DNA of 64,000 bases. Source: Marchantia polymorpha subsp. ruderalis. Its lineage: Eukaryota; Streptophyta; Marchantiopsida; Marchantiales; Marchantiaceae. Position 1 is the stretch's first letter; the number at the start of each line of letters is the position of its first letter. Shown piece by piece: positions 3,525-30,669 of the stretch. The translations under genes were made by a program, and so were the position numbers. The DNA lies in contig AP031358.1 of assembly GCA_037833965.1 (NCBI GenBank), positions 8,688,001 to 8,752,000 on the forward strand, given 5' to 3'. The notes under the pieces are model-generated. The model did not search any database, was not told the DNA's origin, and worked only from the letters and a program-made list of their open reading frames with translations.

Positions 3525-4000
3525 TCTAATGATTGTCAAGATTGATCATAAATTTTGGTGATTGAGCTTTTCAAGATTGACGATAAACCTTGATGATTAA
3601 GCTTGTCAAGATTGACGATAAACTTTGATGATTGAGCTTGTCAAGATTGACAATAAACTTTGATGATTAAGCTTGTCAAGATTGATTTTAAACTTTGGTG
3701 ATTGAGCTTGTCAAGATTGATACTAAACTTTGGTGATTGAGCTTGTCAGGATTGATACTAAAATTTGGTGATTGAGCTTGTCAAGATTGATACTAAACTT
3801 TGATGATTGAGCTTGTCAAGATTAATACTAAACTTTGATGATTGAGCTTGTCAAGATTGACGGTAAACTGTGATGATTGAGCTAATCAAAATTCACCGTA
3901 AACTCTGATGATTGAGCTAGTCAAGATTGACTGTATACTCTGGTGATTGAGCTATTTAAATTGACGTTAAAATCTATTTATTGAGCTAGTTAAGATTGAC
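3525..4000. repeat. 35-bp minisatellite, about 13 units
   Basis: A unit containing GATTGAGCTTGTCAAGATTGA recurs exactly every 35 bases: the GCTTGTCAAG core starts at 3566, 3601, 3636, 3671, 3706, 3741, 3776, 3811, 3846, then in variant form at 3881, 3916 and 3951. The centre of the array is the most uniform and both edges are diverged. 35 is not a multiple of three, so it is not a protein repeat. It sits just upstream of the RNase H-like remnant of the Copia fossil. Confidence 0.9.
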
Positions 4001-5185: not shown

Positions 5186-7904
5186 AAATGGTAAATGGTA
5201 AATGGTAATAGATCAAGCCCAGGGAACCCAAAGGGTCGAAAGGCTGAAAAACACAATACAAGCAACAACCACAAACAAGGGAAAAGACCGCAAAGGCCAA
5301 TCCCTAGCTAGTGCCAAAAGCACTAGAACTGTAACTAATAATGTATCTAATGTAACAACCTAAATCAAAAGGAACTAACTGTAATAAAGAATAGAAATTC
5401 TCTACATCTACATTATGAGCCACTTTAATCTTTACATATCTAGGTACAAGTAAGAAATACATGCTCTTCATCCTCAACTTCTCTTCCATCACATAGCCTA
5501 CAAATACGTTCACTCTTATCAATATTAAGCCAATGTCCTTCCTCAATTCCAAGCCTATGAGATCCAGATCTATGCCTAGCAATTATATGGCGTAAGGATG
5601 TAGAGATTCCTGCAAGTATGTAATCTTGTTCACAATGAACAAGTATAGGATTCACATGAAGTTGATAACACTGCATCTTGGTGCCTCGCTTGCTCCAAAT
5701 AATGTTCAAAAACTACTCCTTCAGACGTTCACGTAGTGCTATAGGTTGCAAGTTCTAGTCGAGTTCCATCACATTCCACCTCAAAGACCAAGTTATCACA
5801 TCTGCTAACCATCCTTTGACACGTGTGGCACTCAAAGCTTGAGGAGGAAGGCGAGAAGGATCAAGAGATCTCACCCTTCTGATGTAAGTGATGGTCAAGT
5901 ATAGAGCTTTAGCCTCTACAAGTAAACAACAAGTTTCTGCAAGAAGAATAACATATGAGGTTTGGTTTCTCACACCCAATTCTTCTTGTCGAAATATCCT
6001 CTACACCCTCTCCACATGCTCCCAACCTGTCTTCTTCTAACTACGACTCCACACTTGGGTCCCATACAATACTACCGGCAAAACTAAGCTTCTAAATAAA
6101 AATTTCCTAAGACTCAAAGACACTAGATGAGCCCTTCTACATTGATTTAACAATGAATATAGAGCTTTGTAACCACCTTCTACTCTCTTTTTTACGCAAA
6201 GTGCCCAACTATAATCATTAGAAAAATCAATGTCTAGATATTTATAACTCTTCAACTCTTCTAATTGTAGATCCTTGTAATAAAAGAAAAACTTAGATCT
6301 AGTGCCCACTATCATGACTTTAGACTTCTCTATATTTACCTCCATCTGATTCTGGGTACAAAAGTTAGCCAAAACGTATGAGTGTTTCTGTAAACTAATT
6401 GCATCACGTGCTAGTAATATGATATCATCTGCATACAAGAGAGCTTTGATAACAACGTTTCCAAGCTTGACACCTTCACTATCACATGCCTCCAACCACT
6501 CTTCGATATCATCTATAAATACTCCAAATAGAGTAGGAGAGAGGGTACAACCTTGAATCATTCCAATGGTACTCAAAACCTCTTCAATTTGAGAAGTGTT
6601 GATCTTGGCTCGAACAGAATGGTATAACGTGGCCACAGTTGTTAGAAGATCTGATGGTACTTCAATGACTTGGAGACTTTTTAATAATAGCTCATGAGGT
6701 TCGGTGTCAAAAGCTTTTTTAAAATCAATGAAGGCGCAAAACAAAGCTTTGCCGTTGCCCTTCGACTTCTTCCATGAAACACGCAAGGCCAAGATATGGT
6801 CAATGATGTTGTATGTGGGGCAAAAACCTGCTTCAAACCGCGCTCTCTTTCGATGAGATTTAGTCCATGTGCTCAACTTTGACTCCATCAATTTGCCAAA
6901 CAACTTGGCAAAAACACTACACACCATGATAGTGCGATAGTTTGTCATCAAGTCCTTCCTTCCTAACTTGTGAATAGGCACAATCTTTCGTAAAGACCAA
7001 GTTGAAGGAAAATCATACATAGCAGCATTCTCTAACGCTTTAATGAGTATCGGTCCAATAACATCCCCTCGCCACTTCAAAAGTTCAATAGAGAGACCAT
7101 CCACATCCTCTGATTTACCATTTGCTAATTTTCTTACTTGAGTCATCACCTCTAATTCAGAAAATAAGCCTGATGTTCCTTCACAAAAAGGCATTGATGC
7201 AGCGTCGGGAACGAAATAAAGCTTTTCAGCAAAGTCAATCAAACTCTTGGGATCAAGAGTAGGTTTAGAAGACCGTACAGCTAACCGTCTCCAAAAGAAT
7301 TTTGGACTCTCCATCAACTCCTTTGTCAAGGATTCCTGCTTCGTACTAAAAAAAAGCTCGTTTCTTAGACTTCACCAAGTCTTTGTAAAGCCTTGTCAAG
7401 ATAAGCCAACTTTGGAGATCCAAAGACTTGTCAACTAATCTCATCCTCGCTTGCTTACAATCTAAGTCAAACCATCCATTGCAAGGAAGCCCCCTAGCTC
7501 TTCGATCCTTGTGTCGCAAAAAGAACTTAGAAGAAGTGTCTTTGAGCAACTTTGTTAGTTGCCCACTTGCTGTATGTGGATCAAGACTCCATGAAGTGTG
7601 GGTCAAAAGGTTTTGAAAATGTAGCATGTAATGCTCTTTCTTACTAGTATCTAAACGAAACTTGGAAGAAGCTAAAACAGAATGGCATGGAAAGAAAGGG
7701 ATTGTTTTGATAACAAGAAAGTAAATAAGAGAGGTGCATGATCTGATTCTGGCTGAGGTTCTAGAATATCAAATTTTGAAATAAGAGAGCTATTAGTGGC
7801 CGAGGATAGAAGATAATCAATAGTGCTAACACTTGTAGAAGAAAAACACGTATTGGAAAGTGATTTGGGAAAGAGCGATACCGTTGAGAACTTTCAAATT
7901 ACAT
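5186..7904 (-). mobile_element. Outer L1-like LINE, 3' half (split by an inserted LINE)
   Basis: On the minus strand this runs from the last part of an APE-type endonuclease (about 7897-7640), through a linker and reverse transcriptase, to a C-terminal Cys/His domain and the 3' end. The 3' end is three copies of the heptamer AAATGGT (plus strand, 5186-5206), that is a (ACCATTT)n tail rather than poly(A). At the right edge it stops in the middle of the endonuclease, exactly where 13110-15705 resumes the same reading, so the two pieces are one element interrupted by the plus-strand LINE at 7905-13109. The ACAT at 7901-7904 is repeated at 13110-13113. The copy is broken by several frame changes and stops and should be dead. 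Confidence 0.88.
5320..7897 (-). pseudogene. LINE ORF2 3' half: endonuclease end, reverse transcriptase, Cys/His C-terminus
   Basis: Minus strand. The first part (7890-7640) carries the end of an APE endonuclease, including the STIDYLLSSATNSS and ESDHAPL blocks, in disrupted form. After a frame change near 7340 a 430-residue open stretch (7329-6037) holds most of a non-LTR reverse transcriptase: NYRTIMV, FIDFKKAFD, QGCTLSPTLFG and the catalytic LLYADDIILLARDA block are all intact. Beyond it the reading continues in pieces (5979-5755, 5709-5440), ending with a C-x2-C ... H-x4-C motif (CRLCDG ... EHVFLTC) like the zinc-binding region found after plant LINE reverse transcriptases. No RNase H domain was seen. 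Stops or frame changes lie near 7340, 6036, 5754 and 5440. It closely resembles the copy at 26211-28180. Confidence 0.87.
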
Positions 7905-8174
7905 AGCTGGGCGCACATACCTGCAAATTTGCAGCCTCAACGGAGCTGCTGTCAAGAAGTTGTCATTTTGAAACTTTGAGTTTAGGGGTTTGAGCATGAA
8001 TCTTGCGGGGGCCATATCTTCTTGCTGGAGGGTCAACAAAAGCTGAGATTTGGTGAGCTTGTTTACAACGGCTGGGCGCACATACTTGCAAATTTTCAGC
8101 TTCAACGGAGCTGTTGTCAAGAATTTTTCATTTCGAAACTTTGAGTTTGTGTAACATCTTGCAAAGTTGGGTTC
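7905..8174 (+). repeat. LINE 5' monomers, about 165 bp, 1.6 copies
   Basis: The block GCTGGGCGCACATAC followed by TGCAAATTT occurs at 7906 and again at 8071, 165 bp apart. The following sequence (CAACGGAGCTG, GTCAAGAA, GAAACTTTGAGTTT) is also repeated. The first unit begins flush at the element's 5' end, and ORF1 starts about 100 bp into the second. These units are related to the half-monomers of the array at 14385-15705. By analogy with rodent L1 they may form the promoter; that is inference. Confidence 0.8.
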
Positions 8175-8912
8175 ATGATGGATTCTGAAAACAAACTTCT
8201 CAATCTTGTGCAAACGGTTTTGGAGGAATTGAAAGTGTTGCGCCAAGAATTTAAGGCACAAAATGTCACCTTGGCTGCTGCAAAGAATGAAATCTGGGAG
8301 TTGAAGATTTCTCACAAAAGTTTTGAGAAGATCATGCTCCAAATCTCTGGATCTGTTGAGAACATCCAAGACAAGGTTGGTTCTCAAGCTTCTACTATTA
8401 CTACTCCTGCTTTGCATGAAGTGGTTGAAACTCTAGAGGTGAAAATGAAATCCTATGCTGAAGCTACCAAGTCTGCTCATATCTCTTTCTGTCAAGAGCA
8501 AGAGATTGAAAAGGCTAATCAATTTGCTTGTATGAAGAATGTAAGGATTTCTGATCTACCTGAATCTGAGAAGGAAGAGGTGAAGAGTGTGGTCACCAAG
8601 TTCTTGACTGAAACACTTGATGTTCCTATTCCGAATTTGGCTCAAGCTTATCGTATTGGCAACAAAGGCACACAACCTCGTGCCATTATTGTTAAGTTTG
8701 TGGATCAAGCTCAACGTGATATGGCTTTAGCTAACAAGGCCATTCTCAAGGAACGGAGGATTTTGTTAGATCCAAATCTTACACCTCTTCAAGTTGAAGC
8801 AAGGAGAAAGAAGCTTGCAAAAGTCAAAGAAGCTCAAGATGCAGGTTTAGTAGCTTATCTACGTGATAGTCAAGCTATTATCACTAAGAGGAGGAGACAA
8901 TCATCAACCTAG
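8175..8912 (+). CDS. LINE ORF1 protein, L1-type (coiled coil, RRM-like, C-terminal domain)
   Basis: An uninterrupted frame of 245 codons. Residues 6-70 show leucine/isoleucine spacing typical of a coiled coil, suiting trimer formation as in animal L1 ORF1p. Residues about 118-190 fit the RRM-like domain: it opens with NVRISDLPESE, has QAYRIG near 157-162 and PRAIIVKFVD near 168-177. Residues 195-240 fit the C-terminal RNA-binding domain (LTPLQVEARRKK). No CCHC zinc knuckle is visible, which is notable because many plant LINE ORF1 proteins have one. The family coats the LINE RNA and acts as a chaperone during target-primed reverse transcription. The start ATGATGG directly follows the 5' monomers. 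ORF1 is open although ORF2 in the same element is broken. It could still be non-functional; expression is unknown. Confidence 0.85.
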   Translation: MMDSENKLLNLVQTVLEELKVLRQEFKAQNVTLAAAKNEIWELKISHKSFEKIMLQISGSVENIQDKVGSQASTITTPALHEVVETLEVKMKSYAEATKSAHISFCQEQEIEKANQFACMKNVRISDLPESEKEEVKSVVTKFLTETLDVPIPNLAQAYRIGNKGTQPRAIIVKFVDQAQRDMALANKAILKERRILLDPNLTPLQVEARRKKLAKVKEAQDAGLVAYLRDSQAIITKRRRQSST

Positions 8913-8936
8913 CAATCCAAGAGGTTGAGGGTGTTG

Positions 8937-11900
8937 ATGTGGAACATAAGAGACCTATCTACAACTAAGTATGTGAGTGCACATCCGATTTGGAAGATGG
9001 CGGACATCCTCAACATTGTTGAGACTTGGGAGCATGAAAGTAATGTTATTGGAGAGATACAAGGGTTTACTCTGGTGGGATCTACTTGAAACCATAGAAA
9101 TCGACAAGCAGGAAGAGGCTTTGGAGGCATTGCTACTTTCATCAGATCTGAACTTCTTCCTATGATACATTTGGAAAGCCAAGATATAGGGATCCAATAT
9201 CATTGGCTTCGTCTTGGATTGATTGGAGGATCTTACAGTTATTTGGCAGTTTGTTACTTTGCACCATTATCCATGCAGATCTACTCCACAAGCACTTGCA
9301 ATCAAAGTCAACCATTCCATCGGCTCATAGGAGATGTTCTCAAATATCAAGACAAAGTTGAATTTTTTCTTGTTGGAGATTTCAATGCCCGCATACATTC
9401 TGCTCAATTTACACAATTTGATAATTCCTTGTGTTCTCCCTCTTTTGAAAAAAGTAGAGATAGTTTGTGGTCTAGAGTCTCTTGTGATCCTTGTACAAAT
9501 GATTTGACTGAGCATTTCTTGACTTTTGGAGCCACTTGTAATCTAAAAGTTCTCAATAGTGTTTCTTTCTTTTCCAACTCTCACTCCAATACCTGTTTTT
9601 CCTCTATTGGTGTTAGCACTATAGATTATCTTTTGTCCTCTGCCACTAATAGTTCATTTATCTCAGCGTTTGATATTCTACAGCCTCAACCAGAATCAGA
9701 TCATACACCTCTTTTATTTACTCTTTTGTTGTCAACGTCAATCCCTCTCTCTACATGTCACTATGTTTCTACTTCCCCCAAGTTTTGTTTAGATGCTAGT
9801 AAGAAGCAACTTTATAGTGAACATTTCCAAGACCTCTTGACTCGTACTACTTGGAGCCTTGATCCACATACATCTAGTTTGCAACTAACCAAGTTGCTCA
9901 AAAAACTCTGCTTCTAAGTTCTTTTTGATACATAAGACTAGAAGAGCTAGAGGTCTTCCTTGCAATGGATGGTTTGACTTTGATTGCAAGCAAATGAGTG
10001 CGAGATCACTTGATAAATCCTTGGATCTTCATAATCGGTTGATTATGACAAGACTTTACAAAGACTTGATGAAGTCTAAGAAACAAGCATTTTTGAGGCA
10101 AAAGCAAGAGTGCTTGACAAAGGAAATCTTGGAGAATCCCAAATCCTTTTGGAGGCGGTTGACAGTACGATCTTCTAAACATACTCTTGATCCCAAGTCT
10201 TCGATTTCTTTTGCTGAAAAGCTTTATTGTTTTCCCAATGTTGCATCAATGCCACATTGTGAAGGAAATCTTGGCCTATTTTCAGAAGTTGAAGTGATGA
10301 CTCAACTCAAACAATTGGCAAATGGTAAATGTGAGGATTTGAATGGGCTTTCCATTGAACTTTTCAAGTGGGGAGGAGATGTTATTGGGCCTATACTCAC
10401 GAAAGTGTTAGAGAATGCTGCTATCCATGACTTTCCTTCAACTTGGTCTCTACAGAAGATTGTTCCTATTCACAAATCTGGGAGCAAGGCCTTGATGACA
10501 AACTATCGCACTATCATGGTAGTTAGTATTTTTGCCAAGTTATTTGGCAAATTGATGGAGTCAAAATTGAGCACATGGGTTGAATCTTGTTAGAAGAGAG
10601 CGCGGTTCCAAGCTGGTTTTCGTCCTACATTCAACACTATAGACCATATCTTGGTTTTACGTGTTCTATGGGAGAAATCCAAGGATAATGTAAAAGCTTT
10701 GTTTTGTGCCTTCATTGATTTCAAGAGAGCTTTTGACATAATACCCCGTGAGCTTTTATGGCAAAGATTGCAAACCATTGGAGTACCATCAGATCTGCAA
10801 CCTCCGGGCTGACTCTCACTCAGGTTTACCTCTGATGGCTTTGTGGTAGCGCATCATGGTTCTAGAATACTAGGATTCATCCTCTCACTCATGTCTCAAA
10901 CACCTTTTCTCACAAACTCTCCATGTATCACTCCAACTCACACACAAACTCTCCTCACATCTCTCTCTTCACATAAACGCAAACACACGTGGATACTCCA
11001 AGATACTCAAAAACTTCACTCCTTCATTACTGAAACAAGTCCTCACACATGACTCTCCAAACTTGCTTGAGAGTTGCTACTCTACCTCTCTATTTATACT
11101 ACTTGAGAAGTTACCATAGTAACATGTGGCAATTTCTCCTAACTTACTTTTACCTAGGTAAGTTTGATTAATACTCTCTATGTGGCAACATGCCATTGGC
11201 CTAGCTAAACCTTCTAGAAGTTTCCGGAATCCAAGATTGAGGTGGCGACATGCCATTGTAAGCTTTTAAACTTCTACAAGCTTCTTAGACACTAAGTCAA
11301 CACTAGACTTAGTCAAGCCAATCATCTTTCATACATTTTAGTCTAACCAATCAAATCCAAGCTTTTAGTCAAATATCTAATCCCTTGGAATCTAGATTTT
11401 TTGTATAAGACAAAATAGAAGTGCTCACCTCTCGTAAATACAAAATAGAAGTGCTCACTTCATTCTTCTAGAACTCCGCTAATCATTCCGCCAACTAAAG
11501 ACATTGTAGCTAAACTTAGTTATGACTAAATAAACTTACTTATAACTAACTAGTTTAGTCATAACTAGCTAGACTTAGCTATCCCTTGGCTAATCATCCT
11601 TAATCACTTGACCACTTCTGACACTTGGTACATATGTGCAACACCCGGTCTTATAGATCTCTTAACAGCGGTGGCTACACTATACCACTCAGTTCGGCCC
11701 AAGATCAACACTTCTCAAACCGAAGAGATTATCATCACCATTGAAGTCATTCAAGGTTCTCCTCTCTCTCCTACTCTCTTTGGAGTTTTCATAGATGATA
11801 TAGAAAGGTGGTTGGAGGATTGTGATAGCGAAGGTGTTAAACTTGGAGGCTTTGTCATCAAAGCTCTTTTGTATGCAGATGATGTCATATTACTAGCACG

Positions 11901-13000
11901 TGATGCCATTAGTTTACAAAAACACCTTGACACTTTGGCTAGCTTTTGTACTCAAAAGCAGATGGAAGTCAATTGGAGAAGTCCAAAGTCATTCTTGTGG
12001 GCACTAGATCCAAGTTTTCTTTCTGTTACAAAGGATTAGAGTTGGAACAAGTTAAAAGTTACAAATATTTGAGCATTGATTTCTCATCTGATTATAGTTG
12101 GGCACTTTGTGTGCAAAAGAGGGTAGAAGCTGGTTTCAAAGCTCTATATTCATTGCTAAATAGATGTAGAGGAGCTCATCTAGTATCTTGGAGTCTTAGG
12201 AAATTCTTATTCAGGAGCTTAGTGTTTCCCGTTATCTTATATGGAACACAAGTGTGGGGTCCTGGTTGTAAGAAAACAGGTTGGCAGCGTTTAGAGAGGG
12301 TGCAAAAGATCTTCTTACAAGAAGAATTGGATGTGAGGACCCAAACTTCTTATGCAATTCTTCTTGCGGAAACAGGTTGTCTACCTCTTGAGGCTGAAGC
12401 TCTCTTTTTGACTATCACTTACGTCAAAAGAGTGAGATCTCTTGATGCTTCTCGACTTCCTCTTGAAGCTTTGCGTGCCACACGTCCCAAGGATTGGTTT
12501 GCAGATGTGGTGACTTGGTCTTTGAGGTGGAATGTGACGGAACTCGATTAGGATTTGCAACCTATTTCCCTACGCGAGCGTATTAAGGAGAAATTTCTTA
12601 GCATTATGTGGAGCAGACGAGGCACCAAGATGCAGTTTTATCAACTTCATGTGAATTCTATGCTTGTTTATTGTGAGCAGAAATACTTACTTGCAAAGAT
12701 ATCTACTTTTTTACGTCATATTATTGCTAGACATAGAACAGGATCTCATAGTCTTGAGATTGAAGAATGGCGTTGGTTGAACATTGATAGGAATGAACGT
12801 ATTGTAGTCTATGTGATGGAAGAAAAGTTGAGGATGAAGAGCATGTATTTCTTACTTGTACTAGATATGTAGAGATTAGAGTGGCTTATAAAGTTGTTGT
12901 TGAGAATTTTTATTCTTTGCTTCAGCTTGAGCCTTATGATTTAGGTTGTTACATTAGGGATGTTATTAGTTACCGTTCTAGTGCTTTGAACACTAGCTAG
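8937..13000 (+). pseudogene. LINE ORF2, broken: APE endonuclease, reverse transcriptase, Cys/His C-terminus
   Basis: Starts 24 bp after the ORF1 stop, with MWNIRDLSTTKYVSAHP, the usual beginning of an APE-type endonuclease. The catalytic blocks GDFNAR (about 9375), STIDYLLSS (about 9615) and SDHTPL (about 9697) are present. The reverse transcriptase follows: NYRTIMV near 10500, FIDFKRAFD near 10712, then an 858-bp insertion (10797-11654), then SPLSPTLFG near 11765 and LLYADDVILLARDA near 11866. The C-terminus ends in fragments carrying the same Cys/His region as the other copies, with a last stop at 12998-13000. Disruptions seen: stops at 9087, 10591 and 12549, and frame changes near 9905, 11966 and 12810, besides the insertion. 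It cannot make a full protein. Confidence 0.88.
10797..11654. mobile_element. Unclassified 858-bp insertion in the inner LINE
   Basis: The reverse transcriptase reading stops after PSDL at 10796 and resumes with DLLTAVATLYHSV at 11655. The six bases AGATCT flank both sides (10791-10796 and 11655-11660). The ends, GCAACCTCCGGG on the left and ACCCGGTCTTAT on the right, share only a short CCGGG-type block. On the plus strand near 10839-10860 the sequence resembles a Pol III A box (TGGCTTTGTGGTAGCGC), followed by a weak B-box-like GGTTCTAGAAT. Read on the minus strand, TGTTGCACAT near the right end could be an LTR start. So a SINE-like element, a solo LTR and a DNA transposon all remain possible. 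It has no coding content beyond a short 69-codon frame. Confidence 0.7.
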
Positions 13001-13109
13001 GGGGTTCTTTTGGTTCTCTCCTTGTTTGGAGTTGGATTTTTTGTATTGTGTTATTTAGCCTTTTGACCCTTAGGGTTCCACAGGCTTGATCTATTTACCA
13101 TTCCATTCC

Positions 13110-13737
13110 ACATGTGGCTCCAAAGGTTAGAATGTGTTCGATCAAAGGATTTGTACAAGTATTAGAAGAGTTTCTAGACCACATACTATCTTCAAGTTCT
13201 TCAAAGGAGGTAAAAGTCAAGATATCACCAACTTGGGTAACTTATGCACAAACTATTCGAGCATTGAATACTCCAACCAGAAAAACTTCACCTTTGCTTT
13301 GGTAATTGAGAACATCTCCTATAAGTCAATGGAATGGTTGACTCCGATTGCAAGCGCGTGTCGAGTAGATATGCATGGACAATGGTGCAAAGTAACAAAT
13401 AGCCAAATAACTATAAGATTTTCCAACCAATCCAAGACAAAGCCAATGATATTGACCTCCAATATCCTGACCTTCTAGATGTATAAGAGGTAGAAATTGA
13501 GATTGATGAAAGAATCAATACCGCCATAGCCTCTTCCTGCACGTTGACTTCTATGGTTTCAAGTGGATCCCATCAAAGTAAATCCTAGTATCTCTTCAAT
13601 AGTGTTGCTCTCATGTTTCCACGTCTCCACAATGTTGATGATGTCCGCCATCTTCCAAATCGGATTAGCACTCACATACTTTGTTGTAGAAAGAACTCTA
13701 ATATTTTACATTAACACCCTCAAGCTCTTGGATTGCT
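13110..13737 (-). pseudogene. LINE ORF2 endonuclease, N-terminal part (outer LINE)
   Basis: On the minus strand this matches the inner LINE endonuclease from its start (an NIR.LSTTKYVSA block near 13690) to FGATC at 13110, where the inner LINE is inserted. It is scattered over different frames, with several stops and frame changes, so it is dead. The endonuclease continues at 7897 on the other side of the inserted element. Confidence 0.82.
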
Positions 13738-13739
13738 AT

Positions 13740-14343
13740 GTTTTGGGATCTAACCAAATCCTACGTCCTTTTAATACAACTTTGTTGGCTAAAGCTGTAT
13801 CACATTGAGTTTGATCATTAAACTTAACTATGATGGCTCAAGGTTGGATTCCTATGGTTCCAATGCTAAAAGCTTGAGCCACATCCGGATTAGGAACATC
13901 AAGTGTTTCAACCAAAAATTTGGTGACAACACTCTTCACCTCTTTCTTCTCAGATTCAGGTAGATCAGAAATTCTCACATTCTTTCTACGAAAAAATTGA
14001 TTAGTCTTTTCAATCTCTTGCTTTTGATAGAAAGAGATATGAGCAGACTTAGTGGCTTCAACATAAGATTCAATCTTCATCTCAAGACTTTCAACCACTT
14101 CATGCAATCTAGGAGTAACAACAGTAGAAGCTTGAGAACCAACTTTCTCCTGAATATCCTCTACGTTTTCTGAAATATCAACCTTGATCTTTTCAAAACT
14201 TTTCTAGGAGAGCTTCAACTCTCGAATTTCATATTGAGCTACAATTAAAGTTGAACTCTTTCCTTGAATTCTGCACGAAGTACTTTCAATACTTCCATAA
14301 CCTTTTGCAGAAGATTGAGTATCAAATTGTTTTAAGACGCCAT
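13740..14343 (-). pseudogene. LINE ORF1, broken and internally deleted (outer LINE)
   Basis: Minus strand. An open piece at 14107-13838 reads HEVVESLEMKIESYVEATKS, then NVRISDLPESEKKEVKSVVT, clearly homologous to residues 81-140 onward of the intact ORF1 at 8175-8912. Upstream, 14343-14110 matches the coiled-coil part with stops. At the 3' side the reading passes from ...RIWLDP directly to the sequence just before ORF2. About 130 bp matching 8779-8910 of the inner copy is missing, which removes the C-terminal RNA-binding domain and the ORF1 stop region. Confidence 0.82.
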
Positions 14344-14384
14344 CATGTGAATGCCTCTCAAAAACTCGAGACTAAAATATGTTT

Positions 14385-15705
14385 CAACTTCAACCTCCGA
14401 ATTGCGTTTAGTCTCAAACTATCGCTTGTGTTCCCTGCCCAGCTTCAAGCTTCCACAAAGTTTCAGGTACAAAGCAAACTCCAGCCCGAAGTTATGGCCC
14501 CTACAAGATTCAGCATTCCTCGCGTTCGGCCTTAGATTTTGCAGGCTCGTGCGCCCTGCCAAGTTTCAGCGTGCTACAAAGTTTCAGCTCCATATCACTC
14601 CCAACCTCGAAGAAACAGCTCTCGGAAGAATCTCTTGCCCTCAAATCTTGAAACTCAAAATTGGACGCACTCTGACTCTTGAACTCTGTTCAATCTGAAA
14701 ATTGACAGGCTTGAGCGCCCTGCCCAATGTTACAATGTCACGAAATTTCAGCCTTTGTTCACACACAAGCCCGAAGTTACTGTCCTTGCAAAATTTGGCC
14801 TCCCCTCTCAAAAAGCTCAGATCTCCAAGACACGTCAATTTCTCGCTTTGAATGGCATTCGGCTTGAGATTTTGCAAGCTTGTGTGCCCTACCTAGCTTT
14901 AGCTCCAGATCACTCCCAACCTCAAAGAAACAGCTCCCGAAAGAATCTTTTGCCCTCAAATCTTGAAACTCAAAGCTTGAAACTCAAAATTGGACGCACT
15001 TTGACTCTTGAACTCCGTTCAATCTTAAAATTGACAGGCTTGAGCGCCCTGCCCGTCACAATGCCACGAAATTTCAGCCTCCGATCACACACGAGCCTGA
15101 AGTTACGGCCCCTGCAAAATTCGGCCTCCCCTCTTAAAAAGCTCATATCTCCAAGACACGTCAACTTCTCGCTTTGAATGGCGTTCGGCCTGAGATTTTG
15201 CAAGCTCGTGCGCCCTGCCTAGCTTCAGCTTTAGATCACTCCCAACTTCAAAGAAACAGCTCCCGAAAGAATCTTTTGCCCTCAAATCTTGAAATTCAAA
15301 GCTCGAAACTCAAAATTGGACGCACTTTGACTCTCGAACTTCGTTCAATATGAAAATTGACAGGCTTGAGCGCCCTGCCCAACGTCACAATGCCACAAAA
15401 TTTCAGCCTCCGTTCACACTTGAGCCCGAAGTTACGACCCTTGCAAGATTCGGCCTTCCCTCTCAAAAAGCTCAGATCTCCAAGACACGTCAACTTCTCG
15501 CTCTAAATGGCGTTCGGCTTGAGATTTTGCAGTCTCGTGCGCACTTCCCAGCTTCAGTGCGCCACAAAGTTTCAGCTACACATCACTCCCAACCTCGAAG
15601 AAATAGCTCACGAAAAAATCTTTTGCCCTCAAATCTTGAAATTCAAAGCTCGAAACTCTAAATTGAACGTATTTTGATTTTGAAACTATGTCCGATCTGG
15701 AAATA
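14385..15705 (-). repeat. LINE 5' monomer array: about 164-bp units paired as about 327-bp dimers
   Basis: The block GCGCCCTGCC or a variant occurs at 14551, 14715, 14882, 15044, 15210, 15370 and 15539, spaced 164, 167, 162, 166, 160 and 169 bp. Alternate units are more alike: CAAGACACGTCAA occurs at 14826, 15152 and 15481, and GACAGGCTTGAGCGCC at 14704, 15033 and 15359, spaced 326-329 bp. So there are about eight half-units forming about four dimers, upstream of ORF1 of the minus-strand LINE. The inner LINE has simple 165-bp units of the same kind. Short frames here are accidental. Confidence 0.9.
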
Positions 15706-17325: not shown

Positions 17326-18733
17326 TCATATTCCCTGTTCAATCAGGTAGTCACCCATCCTCTCCACAATAACGTTGCATTCTGGACCTTTCGTTGGTTC
17401 CTTGTATATACCAATCACCAAAGCGCTGTTTGTCCGCTTGATGGTCACTCCAGTTTGTTGCTGAAATGAGCACAGAGAGAGTAAAATTAAGAAAACGTTC
17501 AACGTACACTTGTAAAGGGAAAATATACACCAATGCTCGAAAACAAGATCACCACATGAAACGCTGGAATTCAAAGTGCTGAGTACCCTCTTTCCTCGAA
17601 TGACCTGACCAGCTTCACCCTGAATGACCATGTACTTGAGTCCTCCCAAATACAAACCAGCCTGTGCAAGCTGACCATTATCCACCATTCCTTTCACGAC
17701 GTTGTCGATCTCATTGTCCTTCAGCTGCGATAACACAAGTTCAAATCGGTGTCTTAGATGCTGCCTGGTAAATTATTTAAATAAGAAATCCGTGCCCGCA
17801 CGAGTTCAAAAAAGATACTAACAGCCAAGGCCCGGAGCTTTAACAACTAAATTAGGATAAATCTCTTTCTCGAAATTCGAGACGGGCTTAGCCTGAAGGC
17901 GAAACATCGGTCCAATTTTGAGGTCGACTAATCGTCCGAACCAAAGAACGACATCTACCCTTCACACTTAGATCACGAATATGCGTTGTCTGTACAAGGA
18001 TGTAGCAGCCTACTGGCGAAGCACTTCATCTGACACACGTGAAGAGCTAGAAGCTAGAATGCAGAGTGAAAGCAACACGGAGCACGGGATATGTAGTGTT
18101 CAGGGATCGACATGCCCGTAAATTGAAAATGACAAGCACGATGCAGAGGAGCTGAAGATCGACAAATTTGAACAAAGCTATCCGAACCCTAGTGGCCGAT
18201 CCTCACTGATCACAAACAACCAACAAACGTACAAATCCACCTCATGAACCGATCATCTCTCCTAGCCTCGATCACAATACAATTGAGTCAAATTCCAGTG
18301 TTTGTGCTATCCACAAACGGGGAATTCGTACAATCGCTACGTGTATGGCGACAGAACAATTCTCAATCGGTGCGGGAAGGCGAGATCAGAAAATATGACT
18401 ATCGATCAATTATATCTAATTCTGGAGAATTAGATAAAATTTATCGGACAATTGACAGACTCGATCTGCAACATCCATGGGTCAAAAATCGACCAAAGAG
18501 TACGTTGACTTGGTCCAGCGGAATGCATAAAACTTCGGAATAACACGCCAACCATCACACGAGCATTAGCGAGCGATTAGGCAAGCGATAACGACGGAAG
18601 TAATCACCTCGGGAAATTCAGCGCTCTGCGCCCAGACGTTGCCATCCTGCCCGATGATGGCCGCGCCTACCAGCCTGCGGCCGGGTTCGATTTCGAGCAT
18701 CAGGTGATCGTCCACATACGATTGCCACGACAT
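17326..18733 (-). CDS. PRF: Profilin (three exons)
   Basis: Minus strand, join of 18733-18608, 17724-17587 and 17460-17326, giving 132 residues, the usual plant profilin length (131-134). Both introns (883 and 126 bp) are GT-AG and sit where plant profilin introns usually sit: after FPE in exon 1 and after GKR in exon 2. Exon 1 opens with the profilin signature [12 protein letters not shown] and has [13 protein letters not shown]. Exon 2 has [20 protein letters not shown]. Exon 3 ends [14 protein letters not shown]3, Y6, W34 and Y126 correspond to the aromatic poly-proline binding surface of the family. Profilin binds actin monomers, poly-proline proteins such as formins, and phosphoinositides in the cytosol. 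AQAGLYLGG replaces the common AP-TGLHLGG, a mild divergence. The frame is intact, so it is probably functional. Confidence 0.96.
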
Positions 18734-26210: not shown

Positions 26211-28069
26211 TTTTCTGAATCAGAGGTGATGACTCAAGTCAGAAAATTAGCAAATGGTAAATCGGAGGATTTGAATGGTCTCTCTATTGAACTTTTGAAG
26301 TGGGGAGGAGATTTTATTGGACCAAGACTCACCAAAGCGTTAGAGAATGCTGCTATGTATGGTTTTCCTTTAGCTTGGTCATTACGGAAGATTGTGCCTA
26401 TTCACAAGTCAGAAAGGAAGGACTTGGTGACAAACTATCGCACTGTCATGGTGGGTAGTGTTTTTGCCAAGTTGTTTGGCAAATTGGTGGAATCAAAGTT
26501 GAGCACATGGACTGAATCTCATCGAAAGAGAGCACGGTTTCAAGCAGGCTTTTGCCCCACATACAACACCATTGACCATATATTGGCTTTGTGTGTTTTA
26601 TGATAGAAGTCGAAGGGCAACTGCAAAGCTTTGTTTAGCGACTTCATTGATTTTAAGAAAGCTTTTGACACCGTACCTCGTGAGCTATTATGGGAAAGGC
26701 TGCAAGTCATTGTAGTACCATCAGATCTTCTAGCAGTTGTGGCCACGCTTTACCAATCTGTTCGAGCCAAGATCAACACTTCTCAAACTGAAGAGGTTTT
26801 GAGTACCACTGGAGTGATTCAAGGTTGTACTCTCTCTCCTACTCTATTTGGAGTTTTTATAGATGATATCAAATAGTGGTTGGAGGCATGTGATAGTGAA
26901 GGTGTCAAGCTTGGAAACTTTGTTATCAAAGCTCTCTTGTATGGAGATGATATCATATTACTAGCACGTGATGCAATTAGTTTACAGAAACACCTATACA
27001 CTTTGGCTAGCTTTTGTACCCAGAATCAGATGAAGGTAAATATAGAGAAGTCCAAAGTCATGATTGTGAGCACTAGATCCAAGTTTTCTTTCTATTACCA
27101 GTATCTACAATTAGAAGAGGTGAAGAGTTATAAATATCTAGGCATTGATTTTTCTAATGATTATAGTTGGGCACTTTGTGTGCAAAAGAGAGTAGAAGCT
27201 GGTTACAAATCTCTATATTCATTGCTAAATCGGTGTAGAAGGGCTCATCTTGTGTCTTGGAGTCTTCGGAAATTTTTATTGAGAAGCTTAGTGTTGCCGG
27301 TAGTATTGTATGGAACCCAAGTGTGGAGTCCTGGTTGTAAGAAGACAGGTTGGGAGCGTGTGGAGAGAGTGCAGAAGATATTTCTACAAGAAGAATTGGA
27401 TGTGAGAAACCAAACCTCATATGCTATTCTTCTTGCGGAAAAATGTGTTTACCTCTAGAGGCTGAAGCTCTATACTTGACCATCACTTACATCACAAGGG
27501 TAAGATCTCTTGATGCTTCTCGCCTTCCTCCTCAGGCTTTGAGTGCCACACGTGCCAAAGGATGGTTAGCGGATGTTATTACTTGGTCTTTGAGGTGGAA
27601 TGTGACGGAATGCGATTGGAACCTACAACCTATAGCACTACGTGAACGTCTAAAGGAGGACTTTATGAATATTATTTGGAGCAAGCGCACCACCAAGATG
27701 CAGTTTTATCAACTTCATGTGAATCCTATGCTTGTTTATTGTGAACAGGATTACCTACTTGCAGGAATCTCTATGTACTTACGCCATATTATTGCTAGGC
27801 ATAGAACTGGATCTCATAGGCTTGGAATTGAGGAAGTACGTTGGCTTAATATTGATAGGAGTGAACGTATTTGTAGGCTATGTGATGGAAGAGAAGTTGA
27901 GTATGAAGAGCATGTATTTCTTACTTGTACTAGATATACAGAGATTAGAGTGACTCATAATATAGATGTAGAGAATTTTTATTCTTTGTTACAGTTATTT
28001 ACTTTTGATTTAGGTTGTTATATTAGGGACATTATTAGTTATTGTTCTAGTGCTCTTGGCACTAGCTAG
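26211..28069 (+). pseudogene. LINE ORF2 fragment: reverse transcriptase and Cys/His C-terminus
   Basis: Reverse transcriptase blocks in order: NYRTVMV (about 26431), FIDFKKAFD (about 26643), QGCTLSPTLFG (about 26820) and LLYGDDIILLARDA (about 26934). The catalytic motif is YGDD, where the other two copies have YADD. The C-terminus carries CRLCDG ... EHVFLTC, the Cys/His motif, and ends with a stop at 28067-28069. Disruptions: stops at 26601 and 26874, and a one-base loss near 27440. The endonuclease and ORF1 are absent by truncation. It is dead, but fairly young to judge from how little is broken. Confidence 0.9.
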
Positions 28070-28180
28070 GGATTGGACTTTGGGGTCTTTTCCCTTGTTT
28101 GTGTTTGCTGTAGCTTGTATTGTGTTTTTCAGCCTTTTGACCCTTTGGGTCCCCAGTCTTGATCTATTGCCATTTACCAT
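26211..28180 (+). mobile_element. 5'-truncated L1-like LINE
   Basis: Starts inside ORF2, just before the reverse transcriptase (FSESEVMTQVRKLANGK), and runs to a 3' end reading GATCTATTGCCATTTACCAT, matching the 3' ends of the other two LINE copies. 5' truncation is usual for LINE insertions. By eye the DNA is very close to the outer LINE (minus strand, 5186-7904) and more distant from the inner one, so it belongs to the same subfamily as the outer LINE. No target duplication was recognised. Confidence 0.9.
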
Positions 28181-28706
28181 CTTCCCTTGAAGTCATGATG
28201 GGGTCTTCCAATATTTTTTCTATACTTGGCCCCTTTCTAACTTTATGAAGGGACTTGATATGAGTTTTTAAAGAGAGATTGGACACAAAGTTACGGAAAC
28301 TTGTTATATACCTGCTGATTTCCGCCTTCATGAGAAAGTCAACCTGGCCTTGGAATTTTGATCATCCTCGCTTATGTTATATCTGGTGGGCAGAAGGATG
28401 TATATTTCCGTGTAGGAGAACTGCATGAAGACGTATATCTGTGGTACAGTAGGGTCTGTACCACAGTCAATATTAGACCAGCGAGTCGCTGGCAGCGACC
28501 CTTGTCCTTGTGCTCAGGAAAACCATCCGCAGGATTGCTGCCCCGCTGGTGAAGAGATTCGACCGGTCACCGGAATCCCGGAAACCGGATACCGGCGATC
28601 GGACCCTGCTGGGGACGTGGGCTGCGGTGATGATCATTTTTGTCGTGGAAACGCAGACACTGTCAAATGTATATTGCGAAACTGACACCTGGGGATCAGC
28701 GCAGCC
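28181..28706 (+). other. Presumed promoter and 5' leader of the transporter gene
   Basis: Between the LINE 3' end and the transporter start. GC content rises towards 28480-28700, which is probably leader sequence. An inverted repeat (28439-28448 with 28457-28466, 10-bp arms, 8-nt loop) lies here. No other gene seen. Confidence 0.4.
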
Positions 28707-30669
28707 ATGACGAATTTGCTGAATGCAGGCGTTGGAGTTGCACCTCCAATTTACACTTTTCTTCTTCCTAGAGCTGCCATCACGATCAATGGGAACTTAA
28801 AAGATATCGGCAAGTCAACATTTTTAAGCACGAGAGCGAGAACGAACGTGAGAAATGAGTTCGTGGCGCTGCAGAGAAGCTTGAAAGTCCTGGCGTCGTC
28901 CAAGAGTAGGAATTGCCCAGACCCGAGTCTCGGTCCTGGTCCGAGAAATTATGAAGAAAAGTCTCTGCTCAAGGACGATCAAGAAGAGAAGAGATGGGGA
29001 GCCGCGAGAAGCGTTCCCCATGAATCGGGAGATATTTCTCGAAATGATGCGGTAGCTCAACCTCAAGCTCTCTCGCTGGCGGAGGATGAAGAGCTTCCCG
29101 AGAGAGCTTTCAGAAAGGTCGGGAGGCGTAACGAAAATGTATCATCTTCCGAGAGAAGAAGGGTTGACGTCGACTTTGAAGAACACGAGGATGCAGAGAG
29201 AGGAGGAGATTCACAAGCTGAGGATTTTCGGACTTTGGTATCGGCGATGGGGCTGATCATGGGGACTGCAGTTGGGCCGGGCATTTTGGGCTTACCAGCA
29301 GCCACATTGCCCTCAGGACTGCAGGCCTCGACGATAATGATCATCGGAGCGTGGGCGTATGTGACGTCGTCTATTCTACTCGTTGCGGAAATCAGTTGCG
29401 CCGTGATGGCAGAGAGAGGCGTGAAGGAAGTGAGTTTCACGGGCTTGGTCGAGCACACACTGGGCTTCGGTGGAGCTCGGGCAGCAGCAGTGGTGTATGC
29501 TTCCCTCAACTACGCTCTCCTGGTAGCATGTGTAGCTGGATTGGGTTCCATTCTTCATGGTTGGGTACCTTTGCCTGCAGCTTTGTGGAGCTCAGCGAGT
29601 GCAGCAGTGGTGGGTGGGATAGTGGGATTTGGTTCCTTTAAGAGTCTGGATCGAGTCAACCGAGCCTTGTGCGGGTTGATGCTGGCAGCCATCACTTCCC
29701 TGGTTGCCATTGGCGTGTACGCAGGAAAATTCATGCTGGTCAATTCTGGTGCCACTTCTGTCTTCTCTTACAGTTCCGTACTCTCAGCAGTGCCGGTGAC
29801 AGTGCTCACTCTGGGGTTCCATGTGATCACTCCGGTGATCTGTAAACTACTCGGAGGGAGGCCTGAAGAGGCACGCAAAGCCATTCTCTTGGGAGGAGCA
29901 GTGCCTCTGGCGATGGTGCTGGCTTGGAATGGAGTGATTCTCAGTTTAGCTCCGTATACATCCCGTGCTCTAGATCCAATAAAGCTTCTGTTGTCTCTGA
30001 ACCGATCTGCTGCTCCGGCAGTTCAAGCTTTCGCCTTTGCTGCTCTTGGTACTACTCTGATCGGCTATGCTGTCAGCTTCCCGAAACAGCTTTCTGATAC
30101 AGGTCGGATTTTCAGCCAAGGAGCTCGACGAGAATTTGAGAGCAAGGAGGGAGAAGATGGAAAGAAGTTGTTTGCAGAAATTCAGCCACTCTTGTGGTCT
30201 CTTTGCCCTCCCACCATAGCCGCCGTGCTCTGGCCTACAGCCTTTGCTTCCGCACTTGATTTTGCGGGTGTTTATGCCAACTGCTTCCTCTTTGGGATCC
30301 TGCCTCCTGTCATGGCCTGGAGATACCGCTATCATCTGTCCGATCAGTACGTCGTTACAATTATCAAATTTAGTCTATGTTGCGTGAGTCTATCATTGAT
30401 GTATATGAACTCATTTGATGAAAACTTCCCATTTGTATTGAATAATAGTAGTGTCTACTCTTAAAATCTTTATTTTTTTTTCTTGAAGTCCTCCTTCAAG
30501 GAACGTTAGAGTCCTGTTCCCTTTAACACTCACTGCAGCTAATATGATACCATAAATTTACAGGGCCGATGTGTTATCGAGAAACAAGCAGTTGGTTCCG
30601 GGAGGCAAGTTGCCTCTGATCTTGCTGTTCGGAATTTCCATTTTACTCGGCATTAGACCCAGAATATAA
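28707..30669 (+). CDS. Tryptophan/tyrosine-permease-like amino-acid transporter
   Basis: Join of 28707-30346 and 30564-30669, 581 residues. The 217-bp intron has a GTACGT donor and a TTACAG acceptor and interrupts codon 547. Without splicing the frame would run into an unrelated tail. Residues about 176-577 form a polytopic membrane domain with about eleven hydrophobic segments. The first carries MGTAVGPGILGLPAAT, the unwound-helix motif of the aromatic amino acid permease family (Trp_Tyr_perm). Exon 2 adds the last segment (LPLILLFGISILLGI). Plants have such proteins; their substrates are poorly known. The first 175 residues are not membrane-like: 1-60 are rich in Ser, Thr and Arg and poor in acidic residues, as in a plastid transit peptide, and 80-172 are strongly charged. 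Plastid targeting is inference. The frame looks intact. Confidence 0.9.

What the first reader, a model, noticed from the sequence alone, without database searches (positions are those of the whole stretch)
7905..15705. Plant LINE with tandem 5' monomers in two arrangements
The outer LINE has about eight units of about 164 bp upstream of ORF1, whose alternate members match best, so they form dimers of about 327 bp. The inner LINE has simple 165-bp units. Monomeric 5' promoter arrays are well known from rodent L1 but I do not know them as a feature of plant LINEs. The dimer build suggests that a single-unit array diverged and was then re-amplified in pairs.
Basis: partly seen in the sequence, partly recalled or inferred. 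Interest (0 to 1): 0.72.

Follow-up and report, generated by a model that had tools for sequence, protein, structure and literature searches.

The report
Liverwort LINE with tandem 5' monomers
A plant "copy-and-paste" genetic element, most likely from the liverwort Marchantia, carries a row of short repeats in front of its first gene, as mouse LINE-1 does, and many such elements pile up in one region of each chromosome that is probably the centromere.

Summary
Observation confirmed. The outer LINE (minus strand) has 1,357 bp of ~164-bp units 5' of ORF1, built as A-B dimers (period 326). The inner LINE, nested in it, has 1.6 simple 165-bp units. The arrays belong to the elements: 30 of 30 loci chosen on ORF1 alone have array sequence at the ORF1 boundary (only 39 bp in one); 42 of 55 listed 165-bp arrays and 35 of 40 listed A-B arrays have ORF1 downstream on the same strand. 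Some arm copies carry arrays too, so they travel with the element. A third subfamily has 181-bp units. Units 165, A, B and 181a are homologous, so the array predates the subfamilies, and a diverged pair was re-amplified as the dimer. The genome looks like Marchantia polymorpha (inferred). LINE hits gather in one region per contig; on contig 9, 93% of 22.5 kb sampled over ~325 kb is LINE (74% body, 19% array). Most likely the units are a monomeric promoter, as in mouse L1 (inferred; no RNA data). The paper searches showed no plant LINE with such arrays; the key Marchantia paper was not held. Bolder, untested: these arrays supply the tandem part of Marchantia centromeres.

The parts
14348..15704 (-). 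5' monomer array of the outer LINE, A-B dimers of ~326 bp (units 15704-15545 A, 15544-15376 B, 15375-15216 A, 15215-15050 B, 15049-14890 A, 14889-14721 B, 14720-14557 A-like, 14556-14436 truncated and unclassed, 14435-14348 remainder)
13743..14347 (-). ORF1 of the outer LINE (frame broken); 90-91% to the 39 other ORF1 matches listed
13110..13742 (-). start of ORF2 of the outer LINE, cut by the inner LINE
   Evidence: matches inner LINE 8906-9539
5187..7903 (-). rest of ORF2 (reverse transcriptase) and 3' end of the outer LINE, ending in TTTACCA-type repeats
   Evidence: (RVT_1, 2.5e-26)
7906..8173 (+). 5' array of the inner LINE, about 1.6 simple 165-bp units
8175..8912 (+). ORF1 of the inner LINE, open, 245 aa
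8913..10796 (+). ORF2, first part (weak endonuclease match), inner LINE
10797..11654 (+). 858-bp insert that splits ORF2 of the inner LINE
   Evidence: absent from the outer and the third copy
11655..13109 (+). ORF2, last part, and 3' end of the inner LINE
26211..28188 (+). third, 5'-truncated copy of the same LINE group in the window

Best explanation
The arrays are the LINE's own 5' region. Each of the three subfamilies seen carries tandem units (165 bp; A+B dimers of 326-348 bp; 181 bp) joined to ORF1. Most likely each unit holds promoter and start-site elements, so a copy cut short during reverse transcription still keeps a promoter, as proposed for mouse L1 monomers. Unit number changes by 5' truncation and by duplication or unequal exchange within the array; in one lineage a diverged pair of units became the new repeat. 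Shown: structure, linkage to ORF1, near-constant register, homology of units, variable unit number, local homogenisation. Inferred: promoter activity, its benefit, and the exchange mechanism.
For: Array at ORF1 in 30 of 30 ORF1-selected loci. Of 55 exact 165-bp-unit arrays in the listed places, 42 have ORF1 downstream, all 42 within 4 bp of 386+165n bp; control on the upstream side 6 of 55. Of 40 listed A-B arrays, 35 have ORF1 downstream (27 within 20 bp of 436+348n); control 2 of 40. Third subfamily: 181a units, then 5-6 181b units, then ORF1 (L091, L094). Consensus units 165, 174A, 174B and 181a are all homologous to one another (z 8.1-15.9). Copies far from the clusters carry arrays with ORF1: this window (C9:8.7 Mb), L054 (C3:0.75 Mb), L066 (C4:2.69 Mb), L023 (C5:4.5 Mb). 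Array type goes with ORF1 group on the tree: the 25 165-type rows form one clade, support 1.0. Array 5' ends show no preferred phase (26 lengths, KS p 0.63). Units within a copy are more alike than under permuted labels (0.955 vs 0.939, p 0.0002).
Against: No transcription data. 13 of 55 and 5 of 40 listed arrays show no ORF1 motif; two of these have ORF1 by alignment (L054, L010), others may be detached, e.g. C4:19.87 Mb with seven units. 8 of 35 A-B arrays are off the simple register. 181b is weakly linked: z 2.2 to 165, 4.6 to 174B, 5.5 to 181a, 7.2 to 174A, while a reverse-complement control reached 4.1. Support for the 348 clade is 0.50 and the three 181 rows do not form a clade as rooted on one of them. 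The 165-type loci L039-L068 were chosen with a 268-bp array query, so their having arrays is no test and their shortest lengths are set by it. Array ends can also be cut by nested insertions rather than truncation.
Confidence: 0.75

Rival explanations
1. The units are a pre-existing centromeric satellite into which LINEs insert, or which a LINE captured once; they have no role for the element.
For: Unit size is nucleosomal; LINE and array hits gather in one region per contig. Some arrays behave like a satellite: 6.26 kb at C9:10694158-10700420 with a 2,162-bp block repeated at 98.3% over 3.7 kb against ~96% between neighbouring dimers.
Against: Register to ORF1 and same-strand linkage; arrays carried into chromosome arms; different but related unit types in each ORF1 subfamily. 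Capture of one ancestral unit long ago is not excluded.
Confidence: 0.1
2. The arrays act mainly at the chromosome: nucleosome-sized units favour CENH3 chromatin or homologous exchange and so keep the LINE in centromeres; promoter action is secondary.
For: Units of 165, ~174 and 181 bp; the C9 cluster sample is 93% LINE; 45 of 100 listed A-B-type ORF1 motifs lie in 1.16% of the genome, the clusters being drawn from related hits; 81 of 100 listed shared ORF1 motifs lie in the clusters of C1-C4.
Against: No CENH3 data here; 55 of 100 listed A-B-type ORF1 motifs lie outside the clusters; poplar and sunflower centromeric LINEs reach centromeres with no monomer arrays mentioned in the passages seen.
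Confidence: 0.12
3. The repeats are an accident of local duplication at each locus, without function.
For: Local homogenisation and block duplication do occur.
Against: Arrays in 30 of 30 ORF1-selected loci and related units in three subfamilies.
Confidence: 0.03

Closest known systems
Mouse L1Md monomeric 5' UTR (PMC6454616, abstract and passages seen)
   Same: Tandem ~200-bp units in the 5' UTR, variable number per copy, several unit types; very long arrays ascribed there to unequal crossing-over
   Different: Units here 165-181 bp; one lineage uses a fixed A-B dimer, another a 181a/181b order; host is a plant; elements cluster in one region per contig; promoter activity untested; no sequence comparison with mouse units was made
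Horse-lineage L1 5' UTR with tandem repeats (PMC5872511, passages seen)
   Same: Tandem repeats inside an L1 5' UTR, copy number changes between families
   Different: About two or three repeats there; up to about 18 dimers here
Celine, centromeric LINE of poplar (PMC11288735, passages seen) and HaCEN-LINE of sunflower (PMC4628103, abstract and passages seen)
   Same: Plant LINE concentrated in centromeres; Celine copies mostly inserted into other elements
   Different: Celine example has a 635-bp 5' UTR, no tandem units mentioned in the passages seen; the sunflower 187-bp tandem repeat is described as a separate sequence on one chromosome pair
Zepp / ZeppL L1 elements of green algae (PMC8226300 and PMC3446292, abstracts and passages seen)
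   Same: L1-type LINEs in nested clusters, one per chromosome, taken as centromeres
   Different: Zepp arrays are said to be mostly 3' ends owing to 5' truncation; no 5' monomers mentioned in the passages seen
M. polymorpha centromere-bordering LINE family and 162-bp satellite (Montgomery 2020, not held; known here only from passages in PMC9516144 and PMC12885004)
   Same: A LINE family concentrated at Marchantia centromeres; a repeat of similar unit length
   Different: Neither the LINE nor the satellite sequence was available, so identity with the elements and the 165/348/181-bp units is untested

Membership tests
LINE (non-LTR retrotransposon, L1-like) | Reverse transcriptase domain | tested here: met
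   RVT_1 PF00078, 2.5e-26, in 6037-7329 minus
LINE (non-LTR retrotransposon, L1-like) | AP-type endonuclease | tested here: inconclusive
   PF14529, E 2.6e-05, 24.5 bits, below the curated 27.4
LINE (non-LTR retrotransposon, L1-like) | L1-type ORF1 protein | tested here: inconclusive
   No Pfam hit up to E 1; no convincing PDB match, best E 0.015; model mean pLDDT 49, not used
LINE (non-LTR retrotransposon, L1-like) | Poly-A 3' tail | tested here: not met
   Outer copy ends in TTTACCA-type repeats, inner copy in a related short tail. Many LINE groups have simple-repeat tails (recalled), so I file it as a LINE, not firmly as L1
LINE with monomeric 5' promoter (mouse L1 kind) | Tandem units directly 5' of ORF1 in copies that reach ORF1 | tested here: met
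   30 of 30 ORF1-selected loci, one with 39 bp only
LINE with monomeric 5' promoter (mouse L1 kind) | Variable number of units, 5' ends at any phase | tested here: met
   26 arrays of 268-888 bp, KS p 0.63; lower bound set by the 268-bp query
LINE with monomeric 5' promoter (mouse L1 kind) | Units drive transcription | not testable with these tools
   No expression data
Centromeric LINE | One cluster per chromosome, nested copies | tested here: met
   Positions; 93% of the C9 sample is LINE. On C1 only 165-type hits were listed
Centromeric LINE | CENH3 occupancy | not testable with these tools
   No ChIP data; centromere identity is inferred from the one-cluster pattern
Free satellite DNA | Arrays independent of any element | tested here: not met
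   As the rule: 42 of 55 and 35 of 40 listed arrays have ORF1 downstream; a minority may be detached

The most novel reading that the evidence does not exclude
The tandem-repeat part of the Marchantia centromere, including the reported 162-bp satellite, is the 5' promoter arrays of these LINEs, expanded in place into satellite-like blocks. The plant's centromeres would then be built and refreshed by one LINE superfamily that supplies both bodies and satellites, caught while a promoter turns into a satellite.
Probability: 0.3. Interest if true: 0.8.

Novelty: new variant of a known kind. Interest (0 to 1): 0.6.

Why it matters
It would show that monomeric 5' arrays arose in plant LINEs as well as in rodent L1. 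That makes the question of why such arrays evolve testable in a haploid, easily transformed model plant. Because the arrays travel with a LINE that fills the presumed centromeres, it also gives a concrete route from retrotransposon promoter to centromeric satellite.

Tried and rejected
Raw self-match by lag without gaps did not show the inner array. A search for another satellite in the C9 cluster: 15 samples of 1.5 kb at 10.41-10.735 Mb all hold LINE sequence (the last only 23%), and TRF found no tandem repeat there other than LINE units, apart from one 23-bp repeat of 2.4 copies. Five samples outside had no LINE. This does not exclude a 162-bp satellite elsewhere. Structure of ORF1: mean pLDDT 49, rejected, no fold search made. 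ORF1 in the PDB: no convincing match. Target-site duplication: no shared word of 5 or more bases for the outer copy by script; ACAT at 7901-7904 and 13110-13113 for the inner copy, read by eye from the printed flanks, weak. Papers: searches; no plant LINE with 5' monomers was seen in the listings or in the passages read. Montgomery 2020 is not held, so it may already describe part of this. The species is inferred from assembly size and contig number, not from a marker.

Rows dropped before counts: (165-bp units) used 27 of 30 loci, leaving out L049, L057 and L058 as duplicates. (dimers) used 26 of 30, leaving out L009 (the window), L020, L026 and L029. (tree) used 24 of the 30 165-type loci (without L039, L049, L057, L058, L060, L061) and 27 of the 30 348-type loci (without L009, L020, L029), plus two window rows and three 181 rows. 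(lengths) used 26 of 30, without L049, L057, L058 and L061. One search used three of the outer array's units. The motif lists show the first 100 of 297, 571, 267 and 103 places, exact ones first, so the adjacency counts cover only those.

Full report
What is there. Window 5187-15704 holds two nested LINEs. The outer one is on the minus strand: 15704-13110 and 7903-5187. The inner one is on the plus strand, 7906-13109, and is itself split by an 858-bp insert at 10797-11654. The outer LINE has 1,357 bp of repeats between 15704 and its ORF1 (14347). The inner one has 268 bp before its ORF1 (8174).

Unit structure. TRF gives period 326 for the outer array. Cut at a common landmark, its units are about 160-169 bp and alternate units match best (A-A 0.67-0.93, B-B 0.86-0.88, A-B 0.55-0.62; shuffled pair, max of 200, 0.53). 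The truncated 121-bp unit and the 88-bp remainder next to ORF1 are not classed. The inner array is 1.6 units of 165 bp with 91% between the two partial copies.

Host. The window lies at C9:8688001-8752000 of a 241,466,482-bp genome in 9 contigs. C3-C9 are 24-33 Mb each; with a hit at 30.38 Mb on C2, C1 can be at most 6.8 Mb by subtraction. M. polymorpha Tak-2 v7.1 has 9 sequences (chr1-8, chrU) and 241,484,302 bp (PMC13078153, section 5 read). I take the host to be M. polymorpha or a close relative and C1 to be a sex chromosome; no marker was tested.

Is it part of the LINE? A search with ORF1 alone (605 bp, no array) gave 40 scored matches of 572 candidates, 30 with DNA. All 30, the window copy included, have array sequence at the ORF1 boundary: 29 of 544 bp or more, ten of them running as A-B array to the edge of the DNA held, and L026 with 39 bp. 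L019/L020 and L028/L029 are pairs 131,730 bp apart and not independent. Of the eight loci brought in by the array query, six show ORF1; L005 and L008 lie inside the long array at C9:10.694-10.700 Mb, whose ORF1 is at 10693559-10694159. The 30 loci chosen with the inner array have 165-bp units before ORF1, but that sample was chosen for arrays. Genome counts with at most 1 mismatch: shared ORF1 motif 297, 165-bp unit motif 571, A-unit motif 267, A-B-type ORF1 motif 103, 181a motif 565; reversed controls 0. In the 100 listed places of each, 42 of 55 165-bp arrays have the ORF1 motif downstream on the same strand, all 42 at 386+165n bp (within 4 bp); on the upstream side it is 6 of 55. For A-B arrays it is 35 of 40, 27 of them within 20 bp of 436+348n and 8 off register, against 2 of 40 upstream. 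Arrays without a motif hit include copies whose ORF1 is present but diverged (L054, L010) and perhaps detached arrays. Copies in the arms carry arrays as well, so the array moves with the element.

Three subfamilies. On a tree of ORF1 the 25 165-type rows form one clade (support 1.0), the 27 348-type rows one clade (support 0.50), and the window's outer copy sits beside the latter (0.56 together), about 0.106 substitutions per site from its nearest. The three rows of a third group, one of them used as root, do not form a clade there, so its unity rests on its array. That group has 181-bp units in a fixed order: 181a (variable number), then 5 or 6 of 181b, then ORF1 (L091, L094, with L079 and L093 consistent). 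Consensus units 165, 174A, 174B and 181a are all homologous to one another (z 8.1-15.9 against dinucleotide shuffles). 181b is linked to 174A (z 7.2), 181a (5.5) and 174B (4.6), not clearly to 165 (2.2); the highest reverse-complement control was 4.1, so the 181b links are weak. In the unit tree two window A units join 174A (1.00) and one window B unit joins 174B (0.98), so the dimer predates the split of the window copy from the young 348-bp family. The order in which 165, A and B arose is not resolved (support 0.16).

How arrays change. Unit number per 165-type copy runs from about 1.5 to 5.2, the low end set by the query, and array 5' ends show no preferred phase (KS p 0.63, 26 arrays). Units inside one copy are more alike than under permuted labels (0.955 against 0.939, p 0.0002, 62 units in 27 copies). 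Dimers lean the same way (0.967 within, 0.946-0.949 between, 55 dimers; not permuted). One array at C9:10694158-10700420 has about 18 dimers and a 2,162-bp block that recurs at 98.3% over 3.7 kb, more alike than neighbouring dimers at about 96%. Satellites are thought to grow this way (established knowledge, recalled).

Where they are. Hits gather at one region per contig (C1 3.4, C2 14.2, C3 15.1, C4 20.0, C5 16.0, C6 12.8, C7 12.0, C8 12.9, C9 10.6 Mb). C1 shows this for the 165 type only: no exact A-unit, A-B-type ORF1 or 181a motif is listed on C1. Of listed shared ORF1 motifs on C1-C4, 81 of 100 are inside the clusters. Of listed A-B-type ORF1 motifs, 45 of 100 are inside clusters making up 1.16% of the genome, and 35 of the other 55 lie within 3 Mb. 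The cluster limits were drawn from related hits, so these figures describe, they do not test. On C9, 15 samples over 10.41-10.735 Mb are 93% LINE, 74% body and 19% array, the last sample only 23%; five samples outside have none. One cluster per chromosome suggests centromeres. A review says that Marchantia centromeres are bordered by a LINE family (PMC9516144, passage), and another paper that they consist of a 162-bp satellite flanked by a LINE family (PMC12885004, passage), both citing Montgomery 2020. I could not compare that satellite.

Interpretation. The simplest reading is a monomeric 5' region like that of mouse L1, where monomers are reported to act additively on transcription and to help promoters survive truncation (PMC6454616, passages). 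Promoter function here is inferred. The bolder reading, that these arrays are the tandem part of the centromere, is open.

Limits. No RNA, no CENH3, no second species. Only about 300 kb of the genome could be read, so the adjacency counts rest on positions of short motifs. ORF1 type stays undetermined by Pfam, PDB and structure prediction.

Noticed in passing
window 3533-4000: Tandem array of a 35-bp unit, 13.4 copies, 87% matches.
   Followed up: no
window 10797-11654: 858-bp insert in ORF2 of the inner LINE; not classified.
   Followed up: no
C9:10429190-10472481 and C9:10560920-10604211: LINE matches recur at an offset of 131,730 bp (e.g. 10471881 and 10603611), pointing to a large duplication inside the presumed centromere.
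   Followed up: partly
L069/L070, C9:10694158-10700420: LINE 5' array of about 18 dimers with a 2,162-bp higher-order block.
   Followed up: yes
contig C1 of G000: The smallest contig, presumably a sex chromosome, lists 165-type LINE motifs but no exact motif of the A-B or 181a type.
   Followed up: no
window 5187-5210 and L076: 3' tail of the outer LINE is a TTTACCA-type repeat, not poly-A; the same repeat sits inside a 165-bp unit array in L076.
   Followed up: partly
window 28707-30464: Open frame of 585 aa on the plus strand after the third LINE copy, not examined.
   Followed up: no
window 17326-17772: Minus-strand frame that reads like plant profilin (recognised by eye, recalled, not tested).
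   Followed up: no
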